Shown here: positions 2,475-34,098 of the stretch, piece by piece
Numbering within the stretch: position 1 is the stretch's first letter
How the letters are laid out: each line of letters begins with the position of its first letter
NCBI RefSeq assembly: GCF_000179555.1
Contig: NZ_AECZ01000006.1
Coordinates: 124,001-188,000, forward strand
Reading direction: 5' to 3'
DNA from: Solidesulfovibrio fructosivorans JJ]
GTDB lineage: Bacteria > Desulfobacterota > Desulfovibrionia > Desulfovibrionales > Desulfovibrionaceae
Length of the DNA: 64,000 bases
Program-made: the position numbers and the translations under genes
The notes under the pieces: model-generated
The model's input: the letters and a program-made list of their open reading frames with translations, nothing else
The model's database searches: none
Told to the model about the DNA's origin: nothing

Positions 2475-2685
2475 TCGCCCCGCAGGGGCGACGGCGTGGT
2501 GGCGGCGGAATTTGCCTGGGACGAGCTTGTCGCGAAGCGACATGCACCGTCCCGACAAATTCCGCCGCCATCTTCACCCAACCGCCTTTCCGGCAACCGG
2601 CCCCGCCTCCACCCGACCGACGCACACCGGACGGGGGGTCCGGGGGGCCCATGGCCTCCCGGCGGGGTCTGGGGCAGAGCCCCAG
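2475..2685 (-). repeat. Composite palindromic 3' element, subfamily R2, copy A
   Basis: A 211-bp modular element read on the minus strand, starting 25 nt after the stop of the Tim44-like gene. Order: hairpin CTGGGGC-aga-GCCCCAG (2669-2685); a C/G-rich block; a variable spacer; a long palindrome at 2501-2569 (outer arms GGCGGCGGAATTTG and CAAATTCCGCCGCC); and a closing hairpin at 2475-2491. Copies B (14695-14905) and C (20616-20824) have the same order and nearly the same length. Confidence 0.85.
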
Positions 2686-2709
2686 CGGCGCAACGGCGTA
2701 AGCGCCTCG

Positions 2710-3513
2710 CTAGCGTTGCTCCATGGCGTCGAGCAGCCAGTTGGCGCCCGGGGTGGCGTTGTCGCGGACGAAACGCCAGCGGTCGAAGCGGTCGGTGTTG
2801 TGGGGCGCGTCTTTTTCGTGGATGAGCACCTTGTAGTCCACGACCATGACGGTTTGGGAACCCTGTTCGCGGTGCTCGGCCAGGGTCGCCTCGACGAGCA
2901 GGACATCCGGCGCGGGCGGCGGCGAGAGGGGCAGGCTGTTTTTGAGATTGGCCAAAAAGTCGGGCGTGGTGAAGCCGGCCAGATCGTCGAAATCGCGCTT
3001 GGCGATATCGGCGAGGATGCGTCCGTAGGCCATTTTGGCCCCGGCCAGGAATTCCTCGTCCGGCGTCGCGCCGGCCGACGGCTGCCCGGCGGACTGCGAG
3101 GCTGTTTTCGAGGACGGCGTCGAGCGCAGGGCATCCCAGGTGGCCTGGGCATTGGTGTACATGTCGCGTTTGGGGCGCGGCGGGGCCGGGGGCGGCGTGC
3201 CGTCGTAGGGTTCGGTGGGGCCGGACCGGTCGTAGGGGCGCGATTGATCCTGGCCGGAACGTCGCGAGCGCCCGAGCAACAGGCGCAAGACCAGAAAGAT
3301 GACCAAACCGACCACGACCAGGTCGAGGACGCGAGGCCCGGTGAACTCGTCGCCGCGCAGGACGCTGCCAAGCACGCCTCCGGTCAACGGATCGGCCAGG
3401 GCCGCGCCGGGGGCGGCGACGACGCCGAGGCAAGCGGCCCCGGCCAGGGCGGCATGGCGGCACAAACGCCGCAAACTTCGGACGGGTAATAAAAGAGGGG
3501 AATGCTTCTCCAT
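2710..3513 (-). CDS. Tim44-like domain membrane protein
   Basis: A 267-residue protein. An N-terminal signal-like segment (Leu/Ala-rich, to about residue 42) is followed by a transmembrane helix (LDLVVVGLVIFLVLRLLLG). Next comes a Pro-rich linker (PPPAPPRPK) and a C-terminal Tim44-like domain from about residue 150 to the end. The Tim44 fold is similar to the mitochondrial import motor subunit. In bacteria this family is membrane-anchored and of unsettled function, possibly in transport or envelope homeostasis. It is monocistronic and followed directly by composite repeat A. Confidence 0.8.
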   Translation of the reverse strand: MEKHSPLLLPVRSLRRLCRHAALAGAACLGVVAAPGAALADPLTGGVLGSVLRGDEFTGPRVLDLVVVGLVIFLVLRLLLGRSRRSGQDQSRPYDRSGPTEPYDGTPPPAPPRPKRDMYTNAQATWDALRSTPSSKTASQSAGQPSAGATPDEEFLAGAKMAYGRILADIAKRDFDDLAGFTTPDFLANLKNSLPLSPPPAPDVLLVEATLAEHREQGSQTVMVVDYKVLIHEKDAPHNTDRFDRWRFVRDNATPGANWLLDAMEQR

Positions 3514-3655
3514 ACTGTTTTTTTGTCAAAGCCCCCCGGGCAAGTCAATGCGCAAGACTTGACGTTCCGTAAAAAAACCTGACAGCCCCCCCCTTCCGGT
3601 CCCGACGGGACAAAATGGGACGATATGAAATGCATGACCATTCAGGCCGTGTGGA

Positions 3656-3672
3656 TTGGCATGTCCTTTGCG
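3656..3672 (+). promoter_or_regulatory. Candidate sigma-54 promoter of the chemoreceptor gene
   Basis: TTGGCATGTCCTTTGCG carries the invariant GG (3658-3659) and GC (3670-3671) separated by exactly 10 nt, with TTGGCA and TTGC elements matching the -24/-12 consensus. The predicted start is near 3683, about 118 nt before the MCP start codon. Confidence 0.7.
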
Positions 3673-3686
3673 TGATAGAAATCACG
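3671..3686. promoter_or_regulatory. CRP/FNR-type palindrome overlapping the sigma-54 promoter
   Basis: CGTGATAGAAATCACG is a perfect GTGA-N6-TCAC palindrome, the core recognised by CRP/FNR-family regulators. It begins within the -12 GC element and extends to about +1, so a bound protein would block sigma-54 polymerase. Which regulator binds is unknown. Confidence 0.45.
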
Positions 3687-3800
3687 AGCTCATGGCGTCA
3701 CAGGGGCTTTCATGACTTTTGCAACAATATGGCATAATGCGTATGTGTAAAAGGATGTGCGCTACGGCCCCGGAAAGAGTGGGGGCTGGAGGGGGGAACT

Positions 3801-5804: not shown

Positions 5805-6015
5805 AACATCGCCGTTGCGGCGGGCATAGGGCGCATGCACGCTTTCCCGCGTGCGGCCGTATGCCCGCCCCTGGCGCGCCCGGGGCGGGAAACCTCGCGG
5901 CATCCCCCGGCCGTTATTGTCCTTTGCCGCCGCCCCCCCGGCGGAAAGCGTTGCCCCCCCGCCCCGCCCCGGTTACAACCGAACCGTCGACGACGCGACG
6001 CGCACGGCGCGCCCC

Positions 6016-6042
6016 TGCGCCCCGGCATCCCGCCGGGGCGCA
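6016..6042. repeat. GC-rich hairpin upstream of the histidine kinase gene
   Basis: Perfect 11-bp arms (TGCGCCCCGGC and GCCGGGGCGCA) enclose ATCCC, about 48 nt before the kinase start. It could affect the mRNA leader or end transcription from the MCP; there is no T-run. Confidence 0.4.
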
Positions 6043-6089
6043 CGTTTCGCATCGGGCCAGGCCGCCCGCCGCAGGAGTGAAGGCTTGCC

Positions 6090-9175: not shown

Positions 9176-9208
9176 ATTCCTCGACGAAACCTTGTCAGGG
9201 AGCACGCG

Positions 9209-12781: not shown

Positions 12782-13569
12782 TCGCGGCCATTCGCGCTTG
12801 GTTCGAAGCCTTTGTCGACGCCCATCGCCTGGGAACGCCCGTCCACGACGCCCACCTGGATCTCAAACGCGTCCATAGCCTCCTCGTCATGGACGAGGCC
12901 AAGGCCCAGGCCGAAGAACTGGAATTGCCCGGACGGCTGCGCGAACTGGCCGTCATCACAGGTCTTTTGCACGACACCGGCCGTTTTCCCCAATACCGGC
13001 GCTACCATACCTTCCGCGACGCCGACAGCGCCAACCACGCCATCCTCGGCACCGTCGCCCTGGCCCGCGAAAACGCCCTGGCCGCGCTGGATAAAACAGC
13101 CCGAGCCCTTGTGCGCACGGCCATCATCTGCCACAATAAACGGGCTCTTCCGGCGCGCGTCGCCTCGGGCCGAGATCCCGACGCCCTGACCCTGGCCCGC
13201 ATCGTGCGCGATGCCGACAAGCTCGATATCGTCCGGGTCATGCTCGAACATTTTCAGGACCCGAAGGAAAAAGACGCCGTGGTGTTTCTGGGGCTGCCCG
13301 ACATCCCCGACGTCTACAATCCCGTCTTCCTCGAAGACATCGCAGCCGGCCGCATAGGAAACTATTACGCCATGGGCTCCACCAACGACTTCGCCCTGCT
13401 GCTTCTAAGCTGGATCAACGACATGAATTTCGCCCGGACCCGGCGCGAATTCTTCACCCGCGGCCTCGTTGCCGGCCTTTTCGACGCGCTGCCAGACCAG
13501 CCCGAGCTTACCGCCTTCAAGACACGCTACCACGACCGGTTCGCCCCGAGCGAAACGATCAGCCACTGA
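12778..13569 (+). CDS. HD-domain hydrolase
   Basis: A 263-residue HD-superfamily metal-dependent phosphohydrolase. Likely metal ligands: the His in KRVHSLLVMDEA, the HD pair in GLLHDTGRFPQ, and the later His and Asp residues (ICHNKRA, RDADKLDI). HD domains of this type cleave nucleotides or phosphomonoesters; the substrate is unknown. The gene is translationally coupled by ATGA to the small membrane protein, and the receiver-TPR gene follows 14 nt downstream, so the three form an operon. Confidence 0.85.
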   Translation: MIAAIRAWFEAFVDAHRLGTPVHDAHLDLKRVHSLLVMDEAKAQAEELELPGRLRELAVITGLLHDTGRFPQYRRYHTFRDADSANHAILGTVALARENALAALDKTARALVRTAIICHNKRALPARVASGRDPDALTLARIVRDADKLDIVRVMLEHFQDPKEKDAVVFLGLPDIPDVYNPVFLEDIAAGRIGNYYAMGSTNDFALLLLSWINDMNFARTRREFFTRGLVAGLFDALPDQPELTAFKTRYHDRFAPSETISH

Positions 13570-13583
13570 CGACCGGAGGCGCC

Positions 13584-14672
13584 ATGGACTTCTCCCCGAT
13601 CCTCTTCGATACCGTCGTCATCGTCAGCGGCAACGAGGAAAACGTCCGACGCGACCGGCGCTCCCTGGCCCCCTTTCGCCCCCGGCGCGTGGAACAATTC
13701 GCCTCCGGCGAAAAAGCCCTGGCCTTCCTCGCCGCCAACCGCGCCGACGTCGTGCTCCTCGACAGCCAGCTCGAAGACATGGACGGCACCCAGTTTCTCC
13801 GCGCCAGCCGCCGCGACCTGCGCCTCAAGGACGTGCCCATCGTCATGGTCACCTCCGAGAGCCAGCGCGACAAGGTCCTCGACGCCATCGCCGTGGGCTG
13901 CGCCGGCTACATCCTGCGCCCCTACTCCGAGGAAACCTTCCGCAAACACGTGCTGCGCGGCTGCCAGGTCGAACGCGTCACCGAAATCGAACGCCAGCAG
14001 ATCGAAGACGCCCGCGAAATGGTGGCCATGGGCAACTTCGACGACGCCATCGAAGCCTTCGAGGAAATCATCACCGAACAGAACATGGCCCAGAAATACT
14101 ACGACATGGGCTGCCGCTGCCTGGTGCGCCAAAAATACGGCCAGGCCATCATCGCCTTCAAGAAAGCCATCAAGATCAACGACCTGTTCGCCGAAGCCTA
14201 CAAGGGCCTGGCCGACGCCTACAAGGGGAAGGGAGAGCTGGACGAATTCAAGCGCTACCTGCAAAAGGCGGCTGAAATCCACGCCCAGTTCAACCACATG
14301 GAACAAACCAAGGAACTCTTCATCGAGATCCTCAAATACGACCCCAATACCCCCAACCCCTTCAACTCCCTCGGCGTCAAGCTGCGCAAAAGCGGCGACC
14401 TCGCCGGCGCCCTGCACGCCTACAAGCAAGCCCTCTCCCTCACCCCGGACGACGAGAATATCCACTTCAACATGTCCAAGGCCTACTACTTCATGGGCAA
14501 TACCGAGGACGCCAAGGAGTGCGTCGAAAAAGCCCTGGAGAGCAGCCCCGGCTTCGAAGAAGGCCGCAAACTCTACCGAAAACTCTTCGGCCGCGAATAC
14601 CCCCGCACCGCGCCCCCGCCCGCGCCGCCCGACGACCGCCAACAGGCGGCGGAATCGTTGCGCGACGACTAG
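13584..14672 (+). CDS. Response regulator with TPR output domain
   Basis: 362 residues. The N-terminal receiver (about 1-130) has phosphoacceptor Asp in VVLLDSQLEDMDG and a conserved Thr-Ser in MVTSESQRD. It is followed by at least five tetratricopeptide repeats (about 150-335; for example GQAIIAFKKAIKINDLFAEA and GALHAYKQALSLTPDDENI). TPRs mediate protein contacts, so the output is likely scaffolding rather than DNA binding. The C-terminus is Pro-rich (APPPAPPDD). Composite repeat B begins 22 nt after the stop. Confidence 0.9.
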   Translation: MDFSPILFDTVVIVSGNEENVRRDRRSLAPFRPRRVEQFASGEKALAFLAANRADVVLLDSQLEDMDGTQFLRASRRDLRLKDVPIVMVTSESQRDKVLDAIAVGCAGYILRPYSEETFRKHVLRGCQVERVTEIERQQIEDAREMVAMGNFDDAIEAFEEIITEQNMAQKYYDMGCRCLVRQKYGQAIIAFKKAIKINDLFAEAYKGLADAYKGKGELDEFKRYLQKAAEIHAQFNHMEQTKELFIEILKYDPNTPNPFNSLGVKLRKSGDLAGALHAYKQALSLTPDDENIHFNMSKAYYFMGNTEDAKECVEKALESSPGFEEGRKLYRKLFGREYPRTAPPPAPPDDRQQAAESLRDD

Positions 14673-14694
14673 GCAGGCAGGCAGGTAGGTCAGG

Positions 14695-14905
14695 CAGGGG
14701 CTCTGCCCCTGCACCCCGCCGAGGGGCCACGGGCCCCCTGGGCCCCCCTTCTCGGCTTTGGCTGGGCGGGGATGGCATTGGCTGGCGGGAAGCCGGGCTG
14801 GATGAAGATGAAGGCGGCATTTGTCGGGACGCTGCCGCCGCTTCGCGGCAGGCTCGTCCCAAGCAAATGCCGCCTCCACCACGCCGGTCGCCCCTTCGGG
14901 GCGAC
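14695..14905 (+). repeat. Composite palindromic 3' element, subfamily R2, copy B
   Basis: 211 bp, sense orientation, starting 22 nt after the receiver-TPR stop. Order: hairpin CAGGGGC-tct-GCCCCTG (14695-14711); nested G/C-rich block with CCGAG pairing to CTCGG; spacer; long palindrome at 14812-14875 (outer arms AGGCGGCATTTG and CAAATGCCGCCT); closing hairpin at 14887-14905 with a TTC loop. It faces element R3 copy 1 tail-to-tail across about 36 nt. Together they fill the 516-nt space between two convergent genes. Confidence 0.88.
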
Positions 14906-14941
14906 AACTTTAGAATAACCTTCCCATATTTTTCTTGAAAT

Positions 14942-15172
14942 GCGGCGCTTCGCCGCTGGCGCGGTTGTTGCCGCAATCGCGTCCGGCGTCGAGGCGCAAA
15001 GCGCCTCGTGCCGCCGGGCCGATTGCGGCAACAAACATACGGCACCCCGCCTCTCCCCAACGCATCCACCACCCACCATCCCAACCCGGTAAAAGGGGGT
15101 CCGGGGGACATCAAGTCCCCCGGCGGTGGGGTCCAGGGGAGGCGGAGCCTCCCTGGCCGCCGGAGGCTCATC
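14942..15172 (-). repeat. Composite palindromic 3' element, subfamily R3, copy 1
   Basis: Read on the minus strand, it starts 17 nt after the YibQ-like gene stop with the head GCCTCCGGCGGCC. Order: hairpin at 15133-15156; hairpin CCGGGGGAC/GTCCCCCGG at 15101-15123; CCCCCTTTTACCGGGTTGGG; spacer; long palindrome with a perfect 15-bp stem (14965-14979 and 15020-15034) enclosing a GAGGCGC-aaa-GCGCCTC hairpin; closing hairpin at 14942-14956. Copy 2 lies at 33886-34098. Confidence 0.87.
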
Positions 15173-15188
15173 CCACACCATGCCGAGC

Positions 15189-16313
15189 CTAGAACTCGGG
15201 GCCGAGTTCGGTCAGGGTGACGAGGCTGACGTGGGGATCGCGTTCCTTGGCCCAGAGGAGCAAGGCTTCGTAGGTTTCGTTGTAGGGGTGGCCGATGGCG
15301 ATGGCGCGGCCGTGTTTGAGGGCGTGGCGTTCAGCGGTTTTGAGTTGGCCGAGGATGGTGCGGACGTTGCGGACGTTGTCGAGAAAAACGGCCCGGCGGT
15401 AGTAGTGCACGCCGGCCTTGCGGGCGGCTTCGGCGGCGGCGCTGGCGGGCGAGGTGACGGAGTCCATGAAAAAGAGGCCGTGCGCCTTGAGCACCGGCAT
15501 GACGGCGTCCATGCCGGCCTGATCGCTGGTGAAGGCCGAGCCCATATGGTTGTTGATGCCGACGATATGCGGCAGTTGGGCGATGTTTTCGGACAGGGTG
15601 GTCTGGATGCGCCGGGTGTCCATGTCGGTGAAAAGCGCTCCCGGGCCGGGATTGACCCGGGGGTAGGAGATCGGCTGCATGGGCTGGTGCAGGATGGTTT
15701 CATTGCCGTGGGCGGCGATCTCGGCGGCCAGGGAACGGGTATGGGGCCGGTTGGGCAGGATGGCCAGGGTCACAGGGAACGGCAGTTCCATGAGTCTTCT
15801 GGCCATGACCGGATTGTCGCCGATGTCGTCGATGACCACCACCATACGCGGCCCTTTGGCGGTATCCTCGGCCGGCTGCGGGGATTGCGTCGCGGGTTCG
15901 GCTGCCGGCGGCGACGGGGGCGCGGCGGGTGCGGCCGGCTCGACCTTGATCCGTACTTGCGAACCGTTGGGAGGCGTTTCCGTGCTGGGCAAATGTTCCT
16001 CGAAGGGCAGCGCGGCGGGCTGGGCGTCATGGGCCACGGCCCGGGCCTCATGGGGCGGTTTGGACGGATGGCGCGGCTTTACGGTGGCGGCGACCGGCTG
16101 GCGGACATGTCCGGCCTTGGCGTTTCGGACGACATGGTCGAGCGGCAGCGGCGGGAACGGTCCGAAAAGGAGCATGGCCAGCACACCAAGGGAGATGGCC
16201 AGCACCAGTCCGGCGATGACCGCAATATAAGGCCGGCCGGGGAGAACGACCTTGCGTTTCCCCCCGGCCTTGGCGCGCGCCGGAGACTTCCCCGGCCCCT
16301 TGGCGGGTTTCAT
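15189..16313 (-). CDS. Divergent polysaccharide deacetylase family protein (YibQ/DUF610-like)
   Basis: 374 residues. The cytoplasmic N-terminus is very basic (KGPGKSPARAKAGGKRK), followed by a transmembrane helix (IAVIAGLVLAISLGVLAMLL), a Pro/Ala-rich periplasmic linker (about 60-140) and the deacetylase-like domain (about 145-370). Family motifs include VVVIDDIGDNP, LPFPVTLAILPNRPHT, NETILHQPMQP and a late AIGHPYNET. The family is related to NodB deacetylases and sits in envelope gene clusters, but its substrate is unsettled. The S41 protease gene lies 25 nt upstream in the same operon. Confidence 0.88.
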   Translation of the reverse strand: MKPAKGPGKSPARAKAGGKRKVVLPGRPYIAVIAGLVLAISLGVLAMLLFGPFPPLPLDHVVRNAKAGHVRQPVAATVKPRHPSKPPHEARAVAHDAQPAALPFEEHLPSTETPPNGSQVRIKVEPAAPAAPPSPPAAEPATQSPQPAEDTAKGPRMVVVIDDIGDNPVMARRLMELPFPVTLAILPNRPHTRSLAAEIAAHGNETILHQPMQPISYPRVNPGPGALFTDMDTRRIQTTLSENIAQLPHIVGINNHMGSAFTSDQAGMDAVMPVLKAHGLFFMDSVTSPASAAAEAARKAGVHYYRRAVFLDNVRNVRTILGQLKTAERHALKHGRAIAIGHPYNETYEALLLWAKERDPHVSLVTLTELGPEF

Positions 16314-16338
16314 GGAAGCCGATTTCCGCTTGCGCGTA

Positions 16339-17622
16339 CTAGGGCTTGTAGGTCTTGATCGGGAAATACTTCACCAATTCCAAAGCGAGCTTGAGCTGAT
16401 TGTCCCGGGCGAGCTGATCGAGCAGCTTCTGCTTGGGATCGTCGGATTCGGACTTTTTCTTACGCTTGTTCACCAGGTGGCGGGACAAATCGCGTTCCCG
16501 AAACTGGTGGTTGGCGGCCAGTTTGTCGCCGTCCGCGCCGTTGTCCTGGAGCGGCACCATGAAGTCGGGTTCGATGCCCTCGGCCTGTATGGAACGGCCG
16601 TTGGGCGTGTAGTACAGGGCCGTGGTCAGCTTGATGCCCGAGCCGTCGGAGAGCGGAATGACGGTCTGCACCGAGCCCTTGCCGAAGCTCTTTTCGCCCA
16701 CGAGCAGGGCCCTTTTGTGATCCTTGAGCGCGCCGGCCACGATTTCCGAGGCCGAGGCCGAGCCGGAGTTGATGAGCACGACGAGCGGCGAGGCGAGGTC
16801 GGCGCCGTCGCCCTTGGCGCTGAACACCTTTTCCTGATCCGGGTTCTTGCCCTTGATGGACACGATCTGGCCCGAGGGCAGGAAGACGTCCGCGACGTTG
16901 ACGGCCTGTTCGAGCAGCCCGCCGGGGTTGTTGCGCAGGTCGAGGATGACGCCCTTGAGCTGCTTGCCGCCCTTCCTGTAGTCGGCCAGGGCCTGGTTGA
17001 GTTCGGCCGTGGTGTTTTCGTTGAAGCGGGTCAGGCGGATATAGAGGTAACCGGGCTCCACTTCATTGCTTTTCACGCTGATGATCGGGATGGTGTCGCG
17101 CACCACCTTCACTTTGAAAGGCTTTTGCTGGTCCTTGTGGATGACGGTCAGGGACACGGGCTTGCCTTTGGGGCCGCGAATCTTCTGCACCGCGTCGATC
17201 AGCGTCATGTCCTGGGTGGGCTGGCCCTCGATTTCCAGGATCACGTCGCCGGCCTTGAGGCCGGCTTTTTCGGCCGGGGTATCGTCGATGGGCGAGATGA
17301 CGGTCAGCCGGCCGTTCTCCATGCTGATCTCGATGCCGATGCCGCCGAATTCGCCCGAGGTGCTGACCTGCATCTCCTTGAACTCTTCCTTGGACAGAAA
17401 GCTGGAGTGCGGATCGAGCTGTTGGAGCATGCCAACGATGGCCCCGTCGATGAGTTCGTTGCGGGTGACGGGCTTGACATAATGGTTCTCCACCAGGTCC
17501 ATGACCTGGCTGAAGCGCTTGAGCGGGGCGAAGCGGTCTTCGTCGTTCTTGGCGGCCAGGGCAACGGAGCCGATAACCAAGCAGACGATCAGGGAACAGG
17601 ACACCTTGGTCAAAAGACGCAT
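16339..17622 (-). CDS. S41 carboxy-terminal processing protease (CtpA type)
   Basis: 427 residues. An N-terminal signal sequence (MRLLTKVSCSLIVCLVIGSVALA) exports it to the periplasm. Next come the PDZ domain (about 90-165, with ENGRLTVISPIDDTPAEKAG) and the S41 catalytic core, containing LRNNPGGLLEQAV, the Ser nucleophile in NSGSASASEIVAGAL and the general-base Lys in GEKSFGKGSVQT. It cleaves C-terminal tails of envelope proteins and commonly controls peptidoglycan hydrolases. The ATG at 17622 is preceded by GGAGG; the ORF opens 12 nt earlier. It is flanked by a LytM factor and a YibQ-like gene, an arrangement common in proteobacteria. Confidence 0.93.
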   Translation of the reverse strand: MRLLTKVSCSLIVCLVIGSVALAAKNDEDRFAPLKRFSQVMDLVENHYVKPVTRNELIDGAIVGMLQQLDPHSSFLSKEEFKEMQVSTSGEFGGIGIEISMENGRLTVISPIDDTPAEKAGLKAGDVILEIEGQPTQDMTLIDAVQKIRGPKGKPVSLTVIHKDQQKPFKVKVVRDTIPIISVKSNEVEPGYLYIRLTRFNENTTAELNQALADYRKGGKQLKGVILDLRNNPGGLLEQAVNVADVFLPSGQIVSIKGKNPDQEKVFSAKGDGADLASPLVVLINSGSASASEIVAGALKDHKRALLVGEKSFGKGSVQTVIPLSDGSGIKLTTALYYTPNGRSIQAEGIEPDFMVPLQDNGADGDKLAANHQFRERDLSRHLVNKRKKKSESDDPKQKLLDQLARDNQLKLALELVKYFPIKTYKP

Positions 17623-17701
17623 ACCTTCCTCCACGAAACATGACAGGCCGCGACACTTACTTCCCGCGCGGCCGTTTCCCTCTCTCTCGTCCGAAAAGCC
17701 C

Positions 17702-18496
17702 TTATCGCCTCACGGCGAACCACTCCGCCGGATTAAGAGCTTTTTCACGAAAACGCAATTCGAAATAGACGCCGGGCTTGCGGATGGGACCGCAATATCC
17801 CGCCTGCCCGAGAACGGCTCCGCCCTCGAGCAAATCCCCCTCGGCCGCGTCGAGACGCCCCAAACAGGCGTACACGGTGTGGCGGCGCCCGCCGTGGGAG
17901 AGAATCAACACCCGACCAAGGCCCATAAGCGCTCCGGTGAAGACCACCCGCCCGGCGGCGGCGGCGGTCACCGGCGTGCCTTCGGGCACGGCCAGCACGA
18001 GCCCCTGGCGCGGCGGATTGTCCGCCGGAGCGAAGGCGGCGGCCACGGGGCCTGTCGCCGGCCAGGAAAAACCTTCCGCCGGCGGCGCGAAGACATCCGG
18101 GACGTCCTCCGCTTTCACCGGCGCATCGGCCAAAGTCGCATTCGCGGCGCGCGCCGGGGGCAACGTTGCGGACGTCCTCGGCGGCGCGAGGAGTTCCGGC
18201 GGCAAGGCGACCGGGACACCGTCCACGCCGGGCAGCCCGGCACCCCGCACCAGCGCCCGCATCCATACATAAAGGCGGTCGGCCTCGGCCCAATCCCCGA
18301 CGGCTCCGGGCTCCCCGGACAAAACGGCCACCCGGCCGGGCCACAGCGCGGCCAGAAGCGCGGCCTGACGTCGGGAGACGGTCTCCCGGGCCGCATCCTG
18401 CCGGCCGGCATGGGACCGGGCCGGCTCCCGGGCCACGGCCCCTCCCGCCGTCGTCAAAAAAGTGACGACAGCAACCACTAGGATGGGCCACTTCAT
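17702..18496 (-). CDS. Degenerate LytM (M23-like) factor, EnvC-type
   Basis: 264 residues from the ATG at 18496: signal peptide (MKWPILVVAVVTFLTTAGGAVA), a variable Ala/Pro-rich region, and a C-terminal M23/LytM fold (about 155-264, with ALMGLGRVLILSHGGRRHTVY). The zinc ligands are missing: the first motif reads PRQGLVLAV instead of H-x3-D, and the last reads GVYFELRF instead of H-x-H. It is therefore probably non-catalytic and may activate amidases, as EnvC does. Unlike classical EnvC it lacks the long N-terminal coiled coil. Its start overlaps the endonuclease stop by 4 nt (ATGA). Confidence 0.85.
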   Translation of the reverse strand: MKWPILVVAVVTFLTTAGGAVAREPARSHAGRQDAARETVSRRQAALLAALWPGRVAVLSGEPGAVGDWAEADRLYVWMRALVRGAGLPGVDGVPVALPPELLAPPRTSATLPPARAANATLADAPVKAEDVPDVFAPPAEGFSWPATGPVAAAFAPADNPPRQGLVLAVPEGTPVTAAAAGRVVFTGALMGLGRVLILSHGGRRHTVYACLGRLDAAEGDLLEGGAVLGQAGYCGPIRKPGVYFELRFREKALNPAEWFAVRR

Positions 18497-19143
18497 GGCA
18501 GAAACGGCCCCAATGGACAACTGTCGCAACGCGGCGCGCGCGGCCGGCACCAGCCGTTGCCCACGCGCACGAGCAGGGCGTGGAATTCATTGTACAAAGC
18601 CGTATCCTCGGGCAGGGCGTCCATGAAAAGCTCCCGCAATTCCTCGTACCCCGCGTCTTCCGGGGCCAGGGCGTGCCGGTTGCAGATCCGCGCCGTGTAG
18701 GCGTCCACCACGAAGCTCGGCAGCGAAAGACCGTAAAGCAGGATGCTGTCCGCCGTCTCCGGCCCCACGCCCTTGACCGCGAGCAGCCGCTCCCGGGCCG
18801 CGTCGAGACCGCCGTCGGCCAGGGCCGTGATGTCGCCGCCAAGTTCATGCACGATAAGTGCCAGAAGGTTTCGCAGCCGGGCCGCCTTGACCCGGAAATA
18901 CCCCGCCGGCCGTATCAGCTCCGCCAGCTCTTCCACCGGCAGGGCGTAAAGCGCCTCGGCCGAAAACCGGCCCGCGGCCTTCAGATTGTCGATGGCGCGC
19001 GCCACGTTGGCCCAATTGGTGTTCTGGGTCAAAATCGCGCCAACCGCCATCTCGAAGGCCGAATCCGCCGGCCACCAGCCGCTGGGGCCGAGCGCCTCCA
19101 ACATGGCCTGATGCATGGCCAAAAAAAGTTCCCGCCGCTTCAT
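18493..19143 (-). CDS. Endonuclease III-like DNA glycosylase
   Basis: 216 residues of the HhH-GPD superfamily, which excise damaged bases. Visible: substrate-helix region (FEMAVGAILTQNTNWANVARA), helix-hairpin-helix (LLAVKGVGPETADSILLYGL) and catalytic Asp in SFVVDAYTARI. The C-terminal Fe-S loop has C-x6-C-x2-C but the protein ends eight residues later, so the fourth Cys of the usual C-x6-C-x2-C-x5-C pattern is absent. The motif Lys of bifunctional EndoIII is not evident, so it is more likely a monofunctional glycosylase. The start at 19143 is the last Met before the domain. Confidence 0.85.
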   Translation of the reverse strand: MKRRELFLAMHQAMLEALGPSGWWPADSAFEMAVGAILTQNTNWANVARAIDNLKAAGRFSAEALYALPVEELAELIRPAGYFRVKAARLRNLLALIVHELGGDITALADGGLDAARERLLAVKGVGPETADSILLYGLSLPSFVVDAYTARICNRHALAPEDAGYEELRELFMDALPEDTALYNEFHALLVRVGNGWCRPRAPRCDSCPLGPFLP

Positions 19144-19301
19144 GCCGTCCCCCGCCCCGTTCCCGTGCGCACGCTTCGTCCTCCCGCCAATGCCGCATCC
19201 CCGATTCCGCCGGCCAAGCCCCCGCCTTTGCAAACGCCTGGCCCCTCGTGTAAGGCATCAATCCGAATGTCGTAACACCGCCAGCCGGCCTGGAGAACGC
19301 C

Positions 19302-19625
19302 ATGTCCGCCGTAATGGTCTACATCACCGCCCCGTCGCCCGAGGCCGCCGAATCCATCGGCCGCGCCCTGGTCACCGAGCGCCTCGCCGCCTGCGCCAAC
19401 ATCCTGCCCGGCATGCGCTCGATCTACCATTGGAAGGGCGCCATCGAAACCGCCGAGGAAACCGTGCTCATCGCCAAGACCCGGTCCGATCTGGCCGACG
19501 CCCTCACCGCCCGGGTCAAGGAGTTGCACGACTACGAAGTCCCCTGCGCGGTGGTCGTGCCCATCGTCTCCGGGCTGCCGGATTTTCTGCACTGGATCGA
19601 CGACGAAACCGCCCCAATCGCATAA
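19302..19625 (+). CDS. cutA: CutA1 divalent-cation tolerance protein
   Basis: 107 residues, the full length of the trimeric CutA1 family: VYITAPSPEAAESIGRALV, RLAACANILPGMRSIYHWKG, ETVLIAKTR and HDYEVPCAVVVPI are all family hallmarks. CutA1 was named for copper tolerance in E. coli; its biochemical role is still debated. A PfkB-type kinase gene follows 15 nt downstream, probably in the same transcript. Confidence 0.95.
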   Translation: MSAVMVYITAPSPEAAESIGRALVTERLAACANILPGMRSIYHWKGAIETAEETVLIAKTRSDLADALTARVKELHDYEVPCAVVVPIVSGLPDFLHWIDDETAPIA

Positions 19626-19640
19626 AGGAGAACCCCGCCC

Positions 19641-20576
19641 ATGCGCATCCTCGTTTCGGGCTCCCTGGCCTATGACCGCATCATGAGCTTTCCCGGCAGC
19701 TTCGCCGAACATATCCTGCCCGACAAGATCCATATCCTCAACGTCTGCTTCCTGGTCGACGGGCTGGAGGAAAAATTCGGCGGCACGGCCGGCAACATCG
19801 CCTATTGCCTGAAACTCCTCGGCGAGGAGCCGACCATCGTGGCCGCCGCCGGCAAGGACTTCGCCGCCTACGAAGCCTGGCTGCGCCACTGCGGCCTCTC
19901 CCTGCAAGGCATCCGCCGCATCGGCAGCGAGTTCACCGCCGGGGCCTACATCACCACCGACCGCTCCGACAATCAGATCACCGGCTTCAACCCCGGGGCC
20001 ATGAAATACGGCGCCCAGTACCCCGTTGCCGACTGCGACCCGGCCGACACCATCGCCATCGCCGCCCCCGGCAACCTGGACGACATGCAGGAATACCCCC
20101 GCATCTGCAAAGCCAAGGGCATCCCCGTCATCGTCGACCCCGGCCAGAACATCACCGCCCTGTCCGGCGAACAGCTCACCGAAATGCTCACCGGCGCCGA
20201 CTACCTCGTCAGCAACGACTACGAGCTGCAACTGATCGAAAACACCACCAAACTCACCCTGGCCGAAATCGTCGGCCGGGCCAAGACCGTCATCACCACC
20301 CTCGGCGAAAACGGCTCCACCATCCGCCAGGGCGCGCGGGAAGACAACATCGCCCCCTGCCCCGTCGCCGATGTCCAGGACCCGACCGGCGCGGGCGACG
20401 CCTTCCGGGCCGGATTCATCAAAGGCCTGTGCCTGGGCAAATCCCCAGTGGACGCCGCCAAGATCGGATCAGTCTCCGCCGCCTACGCCGTGGAAAAACA
20501 CGGCACCCAGGAACACCATTTCACCTGGGACGCCTTCCGCGCCCGCTACGCCGCGACGTTCGGCGAACTGGCGTAG
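19641..20576 (+). CDS. PfkB-family sugar/nucleoside kinase (adenosine kinase-like)
   Basis: 311 residues of the ribokinase fold. Motif 1 (EEKFGGTAGNIAYCLKLLG) is at about residues 46-64 and the ATP-anion hole with catalytic Asp (DPTGAGDAFRAGF) at about 249-261. The early pattern (GSLAYDRIMSFPG) and overall length resemble bacterial adenosine kinase-like members, but the substrate cannot be fixed from sequence. AAGGAG precedes the ATG. Composite repeat C begins 16-40 nt after the stop. Confidence 0.88.
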   Translation: MRILVSGSLAYDRIMSFPGSFAEHILPDKIHILNVCFLVDGLEEKFGGTAGNIAYCLKLLGEEPTIVAAAGKDFAAYEAWLRHCGLSLQGIRRIGSEFTAGAYITTDRSDNQITGFNPGAMKYGAQYPVADCDPADTIAIAAPGNLDDMQEYPRICKAKGIPVIVDPGQNITALSGEQLTEMLTGADYLVSNDYELQLIENTTKLTLAEIVGRAKTVITTLGENGSTIRQGAREDNIAPCPVADVQDPTGAGDAFRAGFIKGLCLGKSPVDAAKIGSVSAAYAVEKHGTQEHHFTWDAFRARYAATFGELA

Positions 20577-20615
20577 TCGAGCCGCCCATAGACCAGGGCT
20601 CTGCCCTGGACCCGG

Positions 20616-20824
20616 CAGGGGCGCTGCCCCTGCACCCCGCCGAGGGGCGGGGGCGCCCCCCGGTCCCCCCTTCTCGGCTCTGGTCGGGCGGAAAGCTTGG
20701 CTTGCCGCGGTCAGGCGATGCTGGAAGATGGGGACGGCATTTGCCGGGACGGTGCATGTCGCTTCGCAACAAGCGCGTCCCGGGCAAATGCCGTCCCCAC
20801 CACGCCGTCGCCCCTTCGGGGCGA
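20616..20824 (+). repeat. Composite palindromic 3' element, subfamily R2, copy C
   Basis: 209 bp in the orientation of the upstream kinase gene, preceded by an extra hairpin CCAGGGC-tct-GCCCTGG at 20593-20609. Order: CAGGGGC-gct-GCCCCTG hairpin (20616-20632); nested G/C block with CCGAG/CTCGG pairing; spacer; long palindrome at 20730-20798 (arms GGGGACGGCATTTG and CAAATGCCGTCCCC); closing hairpin TCGCCCC-ttc-GGGGCGA at 20808-20824. Together with R1-b it fills the 458-nt gap before thiL. Confidence 0.87.
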
Positions 20825-20924
20825 AATAAGAAGGCCTCTTCCTGCCCCCTTCTAAAAGAGCTTCCAATTTAAACGAAATCGGTCGATATTTCTTGGCTCC
20901 GGCTGTCGCGGCCCTTGCCACTTC

Positions 20925-21003
20925 ACCCTTTTAAAGTTTTTCGGGAGGGTGGGGGTCCGGGGGAGGGGACCCCTTTTTTTCAAAAAGGGGTCCCCTCCCC
21001 CGG
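20925..21003 (-). repeat. Short palindromic repeat R1-b
   Basis: A perfect 22-bp stem (20957-20978 and 20982-21003, loop TTC) with the characteristic AAAGTTTTT tail at its left end. It is inverted relative to both neighbouring genes and faces composite repeat C tail-to-tail. It ends about 30 nt before the thiL start codon, so its stem may lie in the thiL leader RNA. Confidence 0.83.
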
Positions 21004-21034
21004 TTCCTCCTTCCCCTTCCCCACCCACCACACC

Positions 21035-21997
21035 ATGCCGCATATACGCTCCGAGGATGATTTCCTGGCTTTGGTCGACCGGCATTTCCCGCGTGGCGGG
21101 GAGTCGGTGGCGCTTTCGCGCGGCGATGACGCGGCCGTAATTGCTTGTCCCGACCGGATGTGCGTCACCACGGATCTTTTTTTGGAGGATGTGCATTTCC
21201 GGCGCTCGTACTTTTCGCCTGGTGATATCGGGTACAAGGCGCTGGCCGTCAATATAAGCGACGTGGCCGCCATGGGCGCGCGGCCGTTGGGCTTCGTCCT
21301 GGGTCTTGTGAGCCCCGGCGACGCCGACCGGGATTTTTGGAACGGGGTCCTGGCGGGCATGGCGGAGCTGGCGGAGGCATACGGGTTGCCGCTGGTGGGC
21401 GGCGATTTGAGCCGGGGCGACAAGACCGGGCTGACTGTGACCATCTGGGGGGAGGCCGGGCCGTCGGGCCGTTTTCTGACCCGGAGCACGGCCAAGCCGG
21501 GGGATATTTTGTTCATCGTCGGCGCGATCGGCCTGGCCCGGGTGGGGCTGGCGCTGTTGGAAAAAGAAGGCATCGGCGCCAGGGAACGCTTTCCGGCCGC
21601 CGTGGCCGCCCATCTGCGCCCGATTCCCCGGGTGGACGAAGGGGTAATCCTGGCCGATATCCCCGGGATCACGGCCTGCATGGACGTCTCCGACGGCCTG
21701 GCCCGGGACCTGCCGCGCTTGCTGCCCCAAGGAATGGGGGCGGATCTTTTCCTGCCGCCGGGCCTGCTCCATCCCGAAGTCACGGCCTACGCCGCCGGGC
21801 ATGGCCGGCAACCGGAGAAAGAGGCGATTTTCGGCGGCGAGGATTACGCGCTTGTGGCCAGCGCCACGCCCGAGGGCTGGAAGGCGGTGCGCGCCGCCCT
21901 GCCCGGGGCGCACCCCATCGGCATGGTCGGCGGCAAACCGGGGTATACGCTCAACGGCGCGCCGTTCGCCATGAACGGCTTCGATCATTTCGGATAG
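21035..21997 (+). CDS. thiL: Thiamine-monophosphate kinase
   Basis: 320 residues. ThiL phosphorylates thiamine monophosphate to the active diphosphate. Motifs: GDDAAVIACPD (Mg/ATP binding) and TTDLFLEDVHFRR near the N-terminus, VNISDVAAMGARP, GGDLSRGD, and MDVSDGLARDL at about 222-232. The ATG at 21035 gives the standard N-terminus (MPHIRSEDDFLALV) but has no clear Shine-Dalgarno site. Upstream in-frame codons run through repeat R1-b and are not coding. The DMT exporter gene starts 3 nt after its stop. Confidence 0.93.
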   Translation: MPHIRSEDDFLALVDRHFPRGGESVALSRGDDAAVIACPDRMCVTTDLFLEDVHFRRSYFSPGDIGYKALAVNISDVAAMGARPLGFVLGLVSPGDADRDFWNGVLAGMAELAEAYGLPLVGGDLSRGDKTGLTVTIWGEAGPSGRFLTRSTAKPGDILFIVGAIGLARVGLALLEKEGIGARERFPAAVAAHLRPIPRVDEGVILADIPGITACMDVSDGLARDLPRLLPQGMGADLFLPPGLLHPEVTAYAAGHGRQPEKEAIFGGEDYALVASATPEGWKAVRAALPGAHPIGMVGGKPGYTLNGAPFAMNGFDHFG

Positions 21998-25954: not shown

Positions 25955-25976
25955 GGTGGAGAAGAGGGAAGAGGAT

Positions 25977-26040
25977 GCGAGAGGGGAAACCCTTTGAAAA
26001 GGGTTCTCCCCTCTCGCGCTCTCCCCTTCCTAAAGTTTTT
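25977..26040 (+). repeat. Short palindromic repeat R1-c
   Basis: Stem arms beginning GCGAGAGGGG and ending CCCCTCTCGC (25977-26017, one mismatch), followed by CTAAAGTTTTT. It lies 22 nt after the TauE stop in sense orientation and faces R1-d. Confidence 0.8.
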
Positions 26041-26079
26041 CCATGACTAAGGTGTAATGGCGACAATACGCTGTAACCG

Positions 26080-26137
26080 TTAAAAGTCTTTGGAAGGGGG
26101 CATGGGGGAAACCTTTCTCCAGAAAGGTTTCCCCCAT
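26080..26137 (-). repeat. Short palindromic repeat R1-d
   Basis: A perfect 17-bp stem (26102-26118 and 26121-26137, loop CC) with the AAAAGTCTTTGGAAGGGGG tail on its left. It is inverted, ends 27 nt before the CNT carrier start codon, and forms a tail-to-tail pair with R1-c. Confidence 0.8.
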
Positions 26138-26164
26138 TTCTTCACCTCTTAAAAGGATACTGCC

Positions 26165-31346: not shown

Positions 31347-31969
31347 AACTGCCCGAGCAGCCCCTCCAGGACCGCGATGACCTGGGCCACCGGGGAAAGC
31401 GGCACGATGTCGCCGTAGCCGATGGTCATCAGCGTCACGTAGCTGAAGAAAAAAAGCAGGCGGTCGGTCATCTCCGGCGTCAGCGGACCGTGGTGCACCG
31501 TAAAGGCGAACGCGTCGGGAATGAGCCTGTTCACAAGGCCGTAGAGCAGAAACCACATGGCTCCCATGAAAAGATAGACGCAAAGCCCGCCCAGCACGGT
31601 GTCCAGATTGACCCGCCGCTGCCGGGCCAGATACAGCGACAGCGCCACGCCCGCCAAAAGGACCACCGCCGCGCCCAACGCGTCGCAGGCCACATCCCAA
31701 AAAACGCCCCCGATGAGGTGCTTTGCCAGCACGCTCAAGACGCTGGCGATCGTTAGCGCGAAAATGACGGGATAGAGCCGGCTATGGCGTACGCCATGAA
31801 CGGAGGCGATCAGCAGAAGCAGAAAGAACACATCCTGGAACACGTCCGTGCCCGCGCCCGTCAGAAACGGCGAAGCCAGAATCTGGGCCAACAGGGCGGC
31901 CAGCAGGATATGGAAGCGATTGTCCGAATGCGACGAGGCGATGGTGGCGTTGAGCGGCGGATTGACCAT
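31277..31969 (-). CDS. Potassium channel-like membrane protein
   Basis: 230 residues, about five to six hydrophobic helices, ending in a pore module: pore loop and selectivity filter MTIGYGDIVPLSP (TxGYG), then the inner helix AVLEGLLGQFYLVFFMARL. There is no cytoplasmic RCK domain, so gating must come from the helices themselves. Convergent 70-nt overlap with the adenylyltransferase gene. Confidence 0.87.
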   Translation of the reverse strand: MVNPPLNATIASSHSDNRFHILLAALLAQILASPFLTGAGTDVFQDVFFLLLLIASVHGVRHSRLYPVIFALTIASVLSVLAKHLIGGVFWDVACDALGAAVVLLAGVALSLYLARQRRVNLDTVLGGLCVYLFMGAMWFLLYGLVNRLIPDAFAFTVHHGPLTPEMTDRLLFFFSYVTLMTIGYGDIVPLSPVAQVIAVLEGLLGQFYLVFFMARLVGLHVAAKQGDPE

Positions 31970-32030
31970 GCGAATCCTCCCTGTCTCACCGGCTACGCGA
32001 TCCCCGACCCGGCCGCAAGCACCCGCCCCG

Positions 32031-33020
32031 TCACAACAAGGACGCGCCGCTTAACAACATGACGAAGCGTTTGTAGAGATCGAGGTCGAAAGAGCCGGTC
32101 ATCTCGTGGCGCATGATGGAAAGCGCCTCGAACGGACGCACCGCATCGGCGTAGACGCGCCTGGAAGTCAGCGCGTCGTAGACGTCGGCCAGGGACACGG
32201 CCCTGGCGTGCAGCGGCACGGCCTCGCCCGAACGGCCGCCGGGATAGCCCCGGCCGTCCATCTTCTCGTGGTGCATGAGGATGCACTCCCGGGCCAGGCG
32301 CGACAGGGAAAGCGGCCGGCAATAGCGCACGCCGAGGGCGGGGTGCTCCCGGACGGCCAGGAATTCCTCGGGCGTCAGGCGGCCGGGCTTGCGCAGGATG
32401 GAGACATCCACCCCTTCCTTGCCGCTGTCGTGCAAAAGCGCCCCCACCCCGGCCTGGATCAGCGCCGGCTTGGGCAGGCCCAGGGAGCCGAGCAGGAACA
32501 CGGTGTAGGCAAAGACATGCACCCCATGGCTGTAGACGTCATAGTCGTGGGACATGAGCGCCCCGATGCGGGCAAGCCCCGCCTCGGTGGCCAGGAAATT
32601 CACGCAATCGCGCACATAGGCCCCGAACAGCCGGCCGTGCCGTTCGGAAAGGCCCTGGGGCAGCCGCGTGTGCAGCAGATCCCGGACAATGTCGCAGCAG
32701 TTGTGATAGAAAACCCCCGCCTTGTGCCGGGTGGCCATCTCCGGGGACAACAGCGCCTCGCCCAGGTGCCGCCGCATATAGCCCCGGTAACGCGCCCGCT
32801 CCTCCTGGTGGATATAGACCACCGACACGCCGTATTCCGCCAGAAGCCCGCGCCGCTCCCGGGTGATCGTCTCGCCGCTGCGGGCGAAAAGGGTGTGGGT
32901 GTCGCCATGGCGCAGATAGATTTCGAAGTCCCCGGCGGCGTGGCCGAAAAGATGCGTCAGCGGAATAGGCTGGAATTCGCTTCCCGGATCGAGCGGCGGC
33001 GGCGGGGGCAATGCGGTCAT
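32031..33020 (-). CDS. HD-GYP domain cyclic-di-GMP phosphodiesterase-like protein
   Basis: 329 residues. The N-terminal part (about 1-135) is an unassigned sensor-like region with Tyr/His-rich stretches (VSVVYIHQEERARYRGYMRR). The HD-GYP domain occupies about 155-325: HGVHVFAYT, HDSGKEGVD (usually HDIGK), the late CILMHHEKMDGRGYPGG carrying the GYP triad, and SLADVYDALTSRR. The triad residues are present, so c-di-GMP hydrolysis is plausible. It is divergent from the SRAP gene. Confidence 0.88.
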   Translation of the reverse strand: MTALPPPPPLDPGSEFQPIPLTHLFGHAAGDFEIYLRHGDTHTLFARSGETITRERRGLLAEYGVSVVYIHQEERARYRGYMRRHLGEALLSPEMATRHKAGVFYHNCCDIVRDLLHTRLPQGLSERHGRLFGAYVRDCVNFLATEAGLARIGALMSHDYDVYSHGVHVFAYTVFLLGSLGLPKPALIQAGVGALLHDSGKEGVDVSILRKPGRLTPEEFLAVREHPALGVRYCRPLSLSRLARECILMHHEKMDGRGYPGGRSGEAVPLHARAVSLADVYDALTSRRVYADAVRPFEALSIMRHEMTGSFDLDLYKRFVMLLSGASLL

Positions 33021-33247
33021 GCGGCGTTTGACTTTGTTACAAAATGGCGTTCCGCTATTCCGACGACCTGTTCAGGTAGCCGAAAATCATACGTATTTGC
33101 GGCGAGTTGACGCATTGCACTGCTCATTGGTCGGTTTTTACCGCCCAATCCTAGCAAAAGCCGGGCCGGTTCATCGCTTCCTCCCCCGCCTTGCCAGCCC
33201 TGAGCCGGCCTGCCATGATCGCGCCCCACGCATAAGGAGGACACGCC

Positions 33248-33865
33248 ATGTGCGGCAGATTCGCCCTGGCCGTGCCGCGCCGCCTGGTGGCCGAAGCCAT
33301 GGGCGTGCCGGACATGCCCCAAAACATCCCGGACCGGCCGGAAATCTCCCCCGGCGAACTCGTCGAGGCCGTCTTCGCCGCCCGGCAAACCGGACGGCAC
33401 ATGGCTGGCCTCTTTCGTTGGGGATTTCTCCCCTCCTTCGCCACATCCGAGCGGCCCCTGCGTCCCATGATCAACGCCCGGGCCGAAACCGCCCTGGACA
33501 AGCCCTCCTTCCGGGGCGCCATCCGCTACCGTCGCTGCCTGCTGCCGGCCCAGGGCTTCTACGAATGGCGCAAGGACCCGGGCGGCGGCAAAACCCGCTT
33601 TTTCGTCACCCTGCCCGAAAGGCCCGTCATGGCCCTGGCCGGCATCTACGAACGCACCCTCACCCCGGAAGGAGAGGCCCGCGACACCGTGGCCATCCTC
33701 ACCCGGCCCGCCGCCTCAGCCATGGCCGCCATCCACGACCGCATGCCGCTCATCCTGCCGCCGGAGATTTTCCGGGACTGGCTCGATCCGCTCCTGACCG
33801 AACGCCAGGACGTGGCCCCGCTTCTGGCCACGCCGCCCCCGGAGTTGCGGTTGGTGGAGGGGTAG
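33248..33865 (+). CDS. SOS response-associated peptidase (SRAP/YedK)
   Basis: 205 residues. SRAP proteins crosslink through Cys2 to abasic sites in single-stranded DNA and shield them. All key residues are visible: Cys2 in MCGRFALAV, Asn in INARAET, Glu in GFYEWRK and His in IHDRMPLIL. AAGGAGG precedes the ATG. Composite repeat R3 copy 2 begins 21 nt after the stop, and umuDC follows on the same strand, so a DNA-damage tolerance locus is likely. Confidence 0.95.
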   Translation: MCGRFALAVPRRLVAEAMGVPDMPQNIPDRPEISPGELVEAVFAARQTGRHMAGLFRWGFLPSFATSERPLRPMINARAETALDKPSFRGAIRYRRCLLPAQGFYEWRKDPGGGKTRFFVTLPERPVMALAGIYERTLTPEGEARDTVAILTRPAASAMAAIHDRMPLILPPEIFRDWLDPLLTERQDVAPLLATPPPELRLVEG

Positions 33866-33885
33866 TGAGGGAGAAAGATCCGGCA

Positions 33886-34098
33886 GGAGAGGCTCTGCCT
33901 CTCCCGCACCTCTCCGCCGGGGGACTTGATGTCCCCCGGACCCCCTTTTACCGGGTTGGGATGGTGGGCGGGGGTGAAGTCGGGAGATGACGGGACGAGG
34001 GATGTTTGTTGCCGCAATCGGCCCGGCGACACGAGACGCTTCGCGCCTCGACGCCGGACACGATTGCGGCGACAACCGCGCCAGCGGCGAAGCGCCGC
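33886..34098 (+). repeat. Composite palindromic 3' element, subfamily R3, copy 2
   Basis: 213 bp starting 21 nt after the SRAP stop, sense orientation. Order: hairpin GGAGAGGC-tct-GCCTCTCC (33886-33904); hairpin CCGGGGGAC/GTCCCCCGG (33917-33939); CCCCCTTTTACCGGGTTGGG; spacer; long palindrome with arms at 34006-34020 and 34061-34075; closing hairpin GCGGCG-aag-CGCCGC (34084-34098). It has the same modules in the same order as R3 copy 1 at 14942. Confidence 0.87.

What the first reader, a model, noticed from the sequence alone, without database searches (positions are those of the whole stretch)
2475..34098. A modular palindromic element of about 210 bp lies just behind stop codons, five copies
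Elements at 2475-2685 (minus), 14695-14905 (plus), 14942-15172 (minus), 20616-20824 (plus) and 33886-34098 (plus) share one plan. In order they carry a small GC hairpin, a nested G/C block ending in a CCCCCTT-type tract, a variable spacer, a long interrupted palindrome of 64-70 bp and a closing hairpin. Each begins 15-45 nt after a stop codon and lies in the same orientation as that gene. The five genes are unrelated (Tim44-like, receiver-TPR, YibQ-like, PfkB kinase, SRAP). Two subfamilies (R2 and R3) differ in all stem sequences but keep the layout and a core length of 209-215 bp. I recognise no named repeat or RNA family. A strand-specific 3' position suggests a transcription or mRNA 3'-end function, or a mobile element that targets gene ends.
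Basis: seen in the sequence. Interest (0 to 1): 0.85.

Follow-up and report, generated by a model that had tools for sequence, protein, structure and literature searches.

The report
Paired palindromes behind stop codons
Bacteria of the genus Solidesulfovibrio carry dozens of copies of two different hairpin-forming DNA repeats just behind genes, and where two genes end face to face the repeats meet as one of each kind; the layout resembles known gene-end repeats (REP/BIME) but is far larger and seems to follow a stricter pairing rule.

Summary
All five elements exist, fold far better than shuffles (z -4.7 to -8.4) and follow stop codons in sense. They belong to two multi-copy families: 56 R2 and 47 R3 copies counted in this 4.67-Mb genome. 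The genus is Solidesulfovibrio; both models match 13 of 14 genus genomes and 0 of 45 others.

This holds for 33 of 33 pairs here, 21 of 21 in G004 (19 of the 33 G000 pairs have a paired G004 counterpart), and 20 hand-tallied pairs in three other genomes. No R2/R2 or R3/R3 pair was seen.

Of mapped copies, 89 of 101 (G000) and 75 of 85 (G004) follow a gene in sense (null 0.59). Stems covary strongly, but G-U pairs are not favoured, pointing to DNA-level upkeep. There is no Rfam family, no terminator call at the three copies scanned, and no linked RAYT.

Best reading: a genus-specific, BIME-like repeat system kept at gene ends, where it probably bounds transcription (inferred, untested). New variant of a known kind.

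The parts
2473..2687 (-). R2 unit, solo, behind the stop (2710) of a Tim44-like gene
14693..14906 (+). R2 unit, left half of a convergent R2/R3 pair, behind the stop (14672) of a receiver-TPR gene
14812..14875 (+). long interrupted palindrome of this R2 unit (approximate, from the fold)
14887..14905 (+). closing hairpin of this R2 unit, the GAC-ended form typical of paired copies
14907..14939 (.). AT-rich linker between the R2 and R3 units (33 nt between model matches; mostly 24-27 nt in other pairs)
14940..15157 (-). R3 unit, right half of the pair, behind the stop (15189) of a polysaccharide deacetylase (YibQ-like) gene
14965..15034 (-). long interrupted palindrome of this R3 unit (approximate, from the fold)
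20590..20826 (+). R2 unit, solo, with one extra leading GC hairpin (from 20590), behind the stop (20576) of a PfkB kinase gene; the core starts at 20614
33882..34100 (+). R3 unit, solo, between an SRAP gene (stop 33865) and an S24-peptidase gene

Best explanation
These are copies of a genus-wide dispersed repeat system that works like REP/BIME elements but is built from two partner units of about 210 bp. Shown: each unit has GC hairpins, a CCGG..CCGGACCCCC-type block, a G-rich C-poor spacer, a long interrupted palindrome and a closing hairpin; it usually sits just behind a stop codon in sense; close neighbours are always one R2 and one R3, tail to tail; stems change mainly by Watson-Crick swaps. 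Inferred: the palindromes are kept up as DNA hairpins, by exchange or copying between copies rather than by stepwise selection on an RNA; like pairs are missing because they would make inverted repeats with arms of about 210 bp that are 76-88% alike, which replication and hairpin nucleases tend to remove; the units persist at gene ends because the transcribed hairpins bound the mRNA 3' end, and the C-rich, G-poor antisense strand of the facing unit may help stop read-through from the opposite gene (Rho-like). No protein that moves or reads the units is identified.
For: 33 of 33 close pairs in G000, 21 of 21 in G004 and 20 hand-tallied pairs in three other genomes are convergent R2/R3; no same-family neighbours within 2 kb in G000 or G004. 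Paired and solo R2 differ at the closing hairpin (25 of 30 against 1 of 21 end GAC in G000; 17 of 19 against 5 of 21 in G004). Sense placement 89 of 101 and 75 of 85. Compensatory changes: 34 cells against 11 in shuffles (R2) and 17 against 4 (R3); across species 21 of 30 and 17 of 24 pairs. Single-sided transitions gave 80 A-C mismatches against 41 G-U pairs. The orthologous copy is the best match for only 43 of 77, which suggests exchange among copies. Spacers are 48-49% G and 16-23% C.
Against: No expression, deletion or binding data. No transposase found: the single Y1_Tnp gene in G000 has no unit within 1.5 kb. Only 1 of 52 changed hairpin loops is a reverse complement, so template switching with loop inversion is not supported. 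R2 and R3 distances within pairs correlate only weakly (r 0.16, p 0.095; r 0.19, p 0.038), which neither fits nor excludes one co-inherited unit. 12 of 101 and 10 of 85 copies do not have a called sense gene upstream. The Rho-like step rests on composition alone.
Confidence: 0.5

Rival explanations
1. A dedicated transcription terminator or mRNA 3'-end RNA structure: R2 and R3 are two designs of one 3'-UTR RNA and the pair is a bidirectional terminator for convergent genes.
For: Position and strand; very stable folds; strong covariation; 25 of 32 mapped pairs in G000 and 18 of 21 in G004 lie between two genes called convergent.
Against: No terminator-like site was called at the units in 13500-21500, which covers three of five window copies. 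G-U is not favoured over A-C, although an RNA stem should tolerate G-U (general knowledge). Most gene ends lack a unit: 5 copies against 60 called genes in the window.
Confidence: 0.25
2. A non-autonomous mobile element (MITE-like, or RAYT-like single-strand transposition) that targets gene ends and has no host function.
For: Copy numbers far higher in two species than in the rest; element present or absent at the same gene end among species (PfkB end); strong hairpins suited to hairpin transposases; BIMEs are proposed to be mobile (PMC2817692, passages).
Against: 58 of 70 sites have a G004 element beside at least one matching flank; three non-shared sites were not clean empty sites; no transposase is linked; no target duplication was seen.
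Confidence: 0.15
3. A chromosome-structuring site (for example a gyrase or nucleoid-protein site like BIME-2) that lies at gene ends only because insertions are tolerated there.
For: DNA-level palindromes spread over the chromosome, with an AT-rich linker of nearly fixed length between the two units.
Against: No binding data. By eye R2 strands are mixed along the G004 chromosome (positions), so no replichore polarity is evident; this was not tested statistically. Tolerance alone does not explain the sense orientation.
Confidence: 0.06

Closest known systems
REP / BIME elements (GTAG and CGTC families; PMC3733652, PMC2817692, PMC8266576: passages read; section 14 of PMC3733652 read)
   Same: Extragenic palindromes, many copies per genome, mostly near the 3' ends of genes and between convergent or same-strand genes, often in inverted dimers with a preference for unlike partners, stems kept by complementary changes.
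   Different: Units are about 210 bp and modular instead of 20-50 nt; two distinct families that pair only with each other in the sample; no GTAG tag in the consensus; CGTC only in solo-type R2; no linked transposase found; confined to one genus in the genomes searched.
MITEs and RU-type small mobile repeats (PMC2229807 and PMC10969869: listings only)
   Same: Size class of 100-450 bp, multi-copy, intergenic, hairpin-forming.
   Different: No target-site duplication or clean empty site shown; oriented behind stop codons; two-family pairing.
Intrinsic (Rho-independent) bidirectional terminators
   Same: Hairpins between convergent genes.
   Different: No U-tract called at the three copies scanned; the genome has separate T-run terminators, for example at 20951.
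Compensatory change by template switching in replication (PMC8794818: outline, abstract and opening text seen)
   Same: Watson-Crick to Watson-Crick swaps without G-U intermediates.
   Different: The expected loop inversions are missing (1 of 52); exchange between copies fits better.

Membership tests
REP/BIME | Unit is a short palindrome of about 20-50 nt (size from PMC8266576 and PMC3733652) | tested here: not met
   R2 cores 211-222 nt and R3 cores 198-254 nt in 60 copies
REP/BIME | Extragenic, preferentially behind genes | tested here: met
   0 of 101 and 0 of 85 overlap a called gene by more than 50 nt; sense behind a gene in 89 and 75
REP/BIME | Inverted dimers | tested here: met
   33 and 21 convergent pairs
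REP/BIME | GTAG or CGTC tag at one end of the palindrome | tested here: inconclusive
   Consensus of 30 R2 and 30 R3 copies has no GTAG; CGTC precedes the closing hairpin in solo-type R2 but not in most paired R2 nor in R3 (read)
REP/BIME (GTAG type) | Linked RAYT (Y1 transposase) gene flanked by the repeat | tested here: not met
   One Y1_Tnp gene in G000; no unit in its locus L329. CGTC families also lack a dedicated transposase (PMC3733652)
Intrinsic terminator | GC hairpin followed by a T run | tested here: not met
   12 terminator-like sites in 13500-21500 (shuffles 7.8), none at the three units there; the units at 2475 and 33886 were not scanned
Rfam RNA family | Match at the gathering score | tested here: not met
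   0 in the whole window; the permissive search of 14400-21100 gave 52 matches, all below gathering
MITE / insertion element | Clean insertions with target-site duplications | tested here: inconclusive
   3 of 12 non-shared sites read in G004, none a clean empty site; no duplication search was run

The most novel reading that the evidence does not exclude
R2 and R3 (and further unit types in sister species) form a two-part DNA punctuation system: hairpin units that an unknown hairpin-reading enzyme or nucleoid protein recognises as an unlike pair, marking facing gene ends, with the closing hairpin of R2 adapted to whether a partner is present.
Probability: 0.2. Interest if true: 0.8.

Novelty: new variant of a known kind. 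Interest (0 to 1): 0.6.

Why it matters
PMC3733652 states that the preference of many REP families for unlike partners has no obvious explanation (section 14). Here the rule had no exception among the pairs counted, the units are large, the two families are easy to tell apart, and solo and paired R2 differ at one small hairpin, so the question can be tested in a cultured sulfate reducer. The data are also a case of strong stem covariation that should not be taken as proof of a functional RNA, because the changes skip G-U.

Tried and rejected
Chance similarity: rejected. Known RNA family: no match at gathering score; 52 sub-threshold matches, mostly microRNA-type hairpins. Plasmid or phage origin: R3 query no match in plasmids and phages, R2 query no match in plasmids (R2 was not searched in phages); the R3 closing hairpin was absent from viral contigs, and one viral contig holds a 5' block alone. 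RAYT partner: not found. Template switching with loop inversion: 1 of 52 changed loops. Pair as one co-inherited unit: weak. G-quadruplex: 95 of 95 R2 and 75 of 82 R3 spacers fit a two-G-tract pattern, but shuffles fit in 83% and 79%, so it follows from composition. Integron attC likeness was weighed from memory only and not tested. Replichore polarity was judged by eye.

Limits of the counts: the 56 and 47 copies leave out antisense cross-matches, C38:17343 (47 bits) and C31:12470 (41 bits). G004 counts (44 R2, 41 R3) come from listings in which 65 or 69 candidates per genome were scored, with stricter filters, so they are lower bounds, and a missed partner can make a pair look solo. The sense null (0.59) rests on 27 intergenic intervals of one window. 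G000 and G004 are not independent: 24 of 33 G000 pairs have a G004 counterpart site, 19 of them a pair. The gene caller is home-made. The first ORF reading of orthologous gene ends picked wrong stops in most rows and was replaced. In one search one pair (C2:76978) had no fetched flanks and some copies lie at contig ends, so 'not shared' includes untested sites.

Naming: the first scan found nothing; the second gave 45 stretches, 43 of them labelled Solidesulfovibrio or Desulfovibrio, one labelled Nocardioides without the element layout (a chance 23-mer) and one labelled Selenomonadales that looks misbinned.

Literature: the listings showed no paper describing these repeats. Passages were read of PMC3733652 (plus its section 14), PMC12306157, PMC2817692 and PMC8266576, and the outline with abstract and opening text of PMC8794818; all others were seen in listings only. 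The library holds only open-licence papers.
Full report
OBSERVATION. The five elements are in the sequence as described. Three (2475, 14695, 20616) belong to one family, here R2, and two (14942, 33886) to another, R3. Their 3' halves fold as DNA far below shuffled energy (z -7.7, -7.0, -8.4, -6.3, -4.7; 0 of 200 shuffles as good each). A home-made codon-usage gene caller puts stops at 2710(-), 14672(+), 15189(-), 20576(+) and 33865(+), each a few tens of bases before an element. Pfam supports receiver-TPR, divergent polysaccharide deacetylase (the YibQ-like gene), PfkB and SRAP; Tim44 is just below its cut-off.

COPIES AND ANATOMY. DNA queries scored 40 candidate regions per family, nearly all full-length copies. 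Covariance models of the 3' halves gave 56 R2 and 47 R3 copies in the 4.67-Mb genome, after antisense cross-matches and two weak hits were dropped (tally). In 60 aligned copies R2 cores are 211-222 nt and R3 cores 198-254 nt. The plan is: one or more leading GC hairpins, a CCGG..CCGGACCCCC-type block, a spacer, a long interrupted palindrome and a closing hairpin. The spacer varies in sequence but keeps its make-up: 48% and 49% G, 23% and 16% C in 95 of 100 R2 and 82 of 88 R3 copies of G000 and G004 in which it could be delimited, against 30% G and 32% C in 28 other 3' segments of the window.

THE PAIRING RULE. In G000, 66 of 103 copies form 33 close pairs. All 33 are convergent and all are one R2 with one R3 (19 with R2 on the left, 14 with R3 on the left); the gap between model matches is 24-27 nt in 26 of 33. 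In G004, a closed relative, 21 of 21 pairs follow the rule. No same-family neighbours lie within 2 kb in either genome. The two genomes are not independent: 24 of the 33 G000 pairs have a counterpart site in G004, 19 of them also a pair. Among 45 stretches picked by the exact R3 closing hairpin, 20 show an R2 partner, all convergent, with gaps of 30-75 nt, in S. alcoholivorans, Desulfovibrio sp. UBA12339 and Solidesulfovibrio sp. D159_maxbin.009 (my tally). R2 copies in pairs carry a closing hairpin ending GAC (25 of 30 classified in G000; 17 of 19 in G004), solo copies mostly GAA (1 of 21 and 5 of 21 end GAC); Fisher p = 1e-8 and 3e-5.

A POSSIBLE WIDER RULE. In five loci where the R2-family model gave weak second matches of 25-32 bits, the unit facing R2 or R3 looks by eye like a third type: the same CCGG block followed almost directly by a simple long palindrome (L129, L130 and L131 facing R2-like units; L164 and L166 facing R3-like units). 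These were only read, not modelled. They too are unlike pairs.

POSITION. Of 101 mapped copies in G000, 89 have their upstream called gene in sense; in G004, 75 of 85. Random intergenic positions in the window would give 0.59. For those copies the median distance from stop to palindrome is 139 and 141 nt, about the length of the 5' block and spacer plus a few tens of bases. No copy overlaps a called gene by more than 50 nt. Both genes are called convergent at 25 of 32 mapped pairs in G000 and 18 of 21 in G004. Some of the 12 and 10 exceptions may be gene-caller errors.

RELATIVES. Of 59 genomes of the order, both models match 13 of 14 same-genus genomes and 0 of 45 others, at E up to 1e-6 and with the stricter filters of a large search. 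The genus is Solidesulfovibrio by the named records; contig lengths equate G002, G003, G006, G007, G010 and G013 with UBA12339, S. alcoholivorans DSM 5433, S. aerotolerans DSM 16695, S. magneticus UBA7700, D159_maxbin.009 and Desulfovibrio sp. DV. More distant species keep the layout and closing hairpins while long stems differ. In alignments of 27 R2-type and 28 R3-type copies (six of each from G000), 21 of 30 and 17 of 24 consensus pairs show compensatory changes; the R2 set has 4 G-U among 810 cells. At the PfkB gene end, 7 of the 13 genomes with the gene have 69-78 nt to the next called gene and no element; G000 and G004 have R2; G001 and G003 have an R3-type 5' block without the full palindrome. 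At the deacetylase gene end, G006 has a same-plan element with an unrelated palindrome, read by eye. Type and presence thus turn over at orthologous gene ends.

SHARED AND NON-SHARED SITES. Flanks of G000 and G004 are 83-97% identical, median 93%. Of 70 G000 sites, 58 have a G004 element beside at least one matching flank, 47 beside both; the element type differs at some. Three of the other 12 were read in G004: one keeps the R3 5' block and spacer but lacks the palindromes, linker and R2; one keeps only the first hairpin and has other, coding-looking sequence; one keeps an R2 5' block followed by a short perfect palindrome and TTTTTT. None is a clean empty site.

DNA OR RNA. Within G000, R2 stems have 34 doubly changed cells against 11 in shuffles, and R3 17 against 4. 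Among 77 orthologous copies, counted in both directions, 107 pairs changed on both sides against about 10 expected from independent change, 95 of them Watson-Crick to Watson-Crick; paired positions differ by 3.9%, unpaired by 13.5%. Counting each pair once, 52 of 64 double changes are Watson-Crick swaps, and single-sided transitions gave 80 A-C mismatches and 41 G-U pairs, p = 0.0005 against equality. An RNA stem should tolerate G-U (general knowledge), so this points to upkeep at the DNA level. PMC8794818 (abstract and opening text) describes template switching as a route to such swaps; it should also invert loops, but only 1 of 52 changed loops is a reverse complement. Exchange between copies is the likelier route: the orthologous copy is the best match for only 43 of 77.

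WHAT IT IS NOT. No Rfam family at gathering score. No terminator-like call at the three units in 13500-21500. No match to R3 in plasmids or phages or to R2 in plasmids. The single Y1 transposase gene found in G000 has no unit within its 1.5-kb flanks.

INTERPRETATION. The nearest known kind is the REP/BIME class: extragenic palindromes near gene ends, often in inverted dimers of unlike partners, a preference that PMC3733652 calls unexplained and relates to clearance of long hairpins. The present units fail its size feature and the linked-transposase feature of its GTAG type, so I do not file them as REPs; they work like BIMEs. I infer that the pair rule avoids long inverted repeats and that the units bound transcription at gene ends. 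The boundary role and any mover remain unshown.

Noticed in passing
window 1771-2005 and 2023-2257: Tandem duplication of 235 nt, 91% identical, each copy with a small called ORF (1797-2006 and 2049-2258).
   Followed up: no
window 2320-2417 and 20926-21023: Another gene-end repeat: long hairpin with T and A runs followed by CCGGACCCCCACCCTCCC..AAAAACTTT..GGGG, on opposite strands, 80% alike; it shares the CCGGACCCCC theme and is called terminator-like at 20951.
   Followed up: partly
window 37595-37671 and 42487-42563: Inverted pair of 77-nt terminator-like repeats, 96% alike, with a CTCCGGCGGCC..CCTGGACCCCC frame.
   Followed up: no
window 25969-26141, 57760-57834 and 60155-60234: Third terminator-like repeat group with GCGCGAGAGGGG..CCCCTCTCGC arms.
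   Followed up: no
L129, L130, L131, L164, L166: A third unit type (CCGG block plus a simple long palindrome, little spacer) faces R2 or R3 units in sister species; read by eye.
   Followed up: partly
G000 contig ends (C21, C22, C24, C25, C28, C52, C53, C54): Eight copies lie within 125 nt of a contig end; about 1.2 expected by chance, p 3e-5. The units seem hard to sequence or assemble.
   Followed up: partly
L334 (G004 counterpart of the G000 C2:54354 site): An R2 5' block continues into a short perfect palindrome and TTTTTT, then an AT-rich stretch of more than 1 kb that the flank of G000 lacks.
   Followed up: partly
L263 (contig labelled Selenomonadales): An R2-like unit with a shortened palindrome faces an R3 hairpin at the contig end; probably a misbinned Solidesulfovibrio contig.
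   Followed up: partly
L338 1797-1834 (viral contig): The CTCCGGCGGCC..GGACCCCCC 5' block occurs without a palindrome unit.
   Followed up: no
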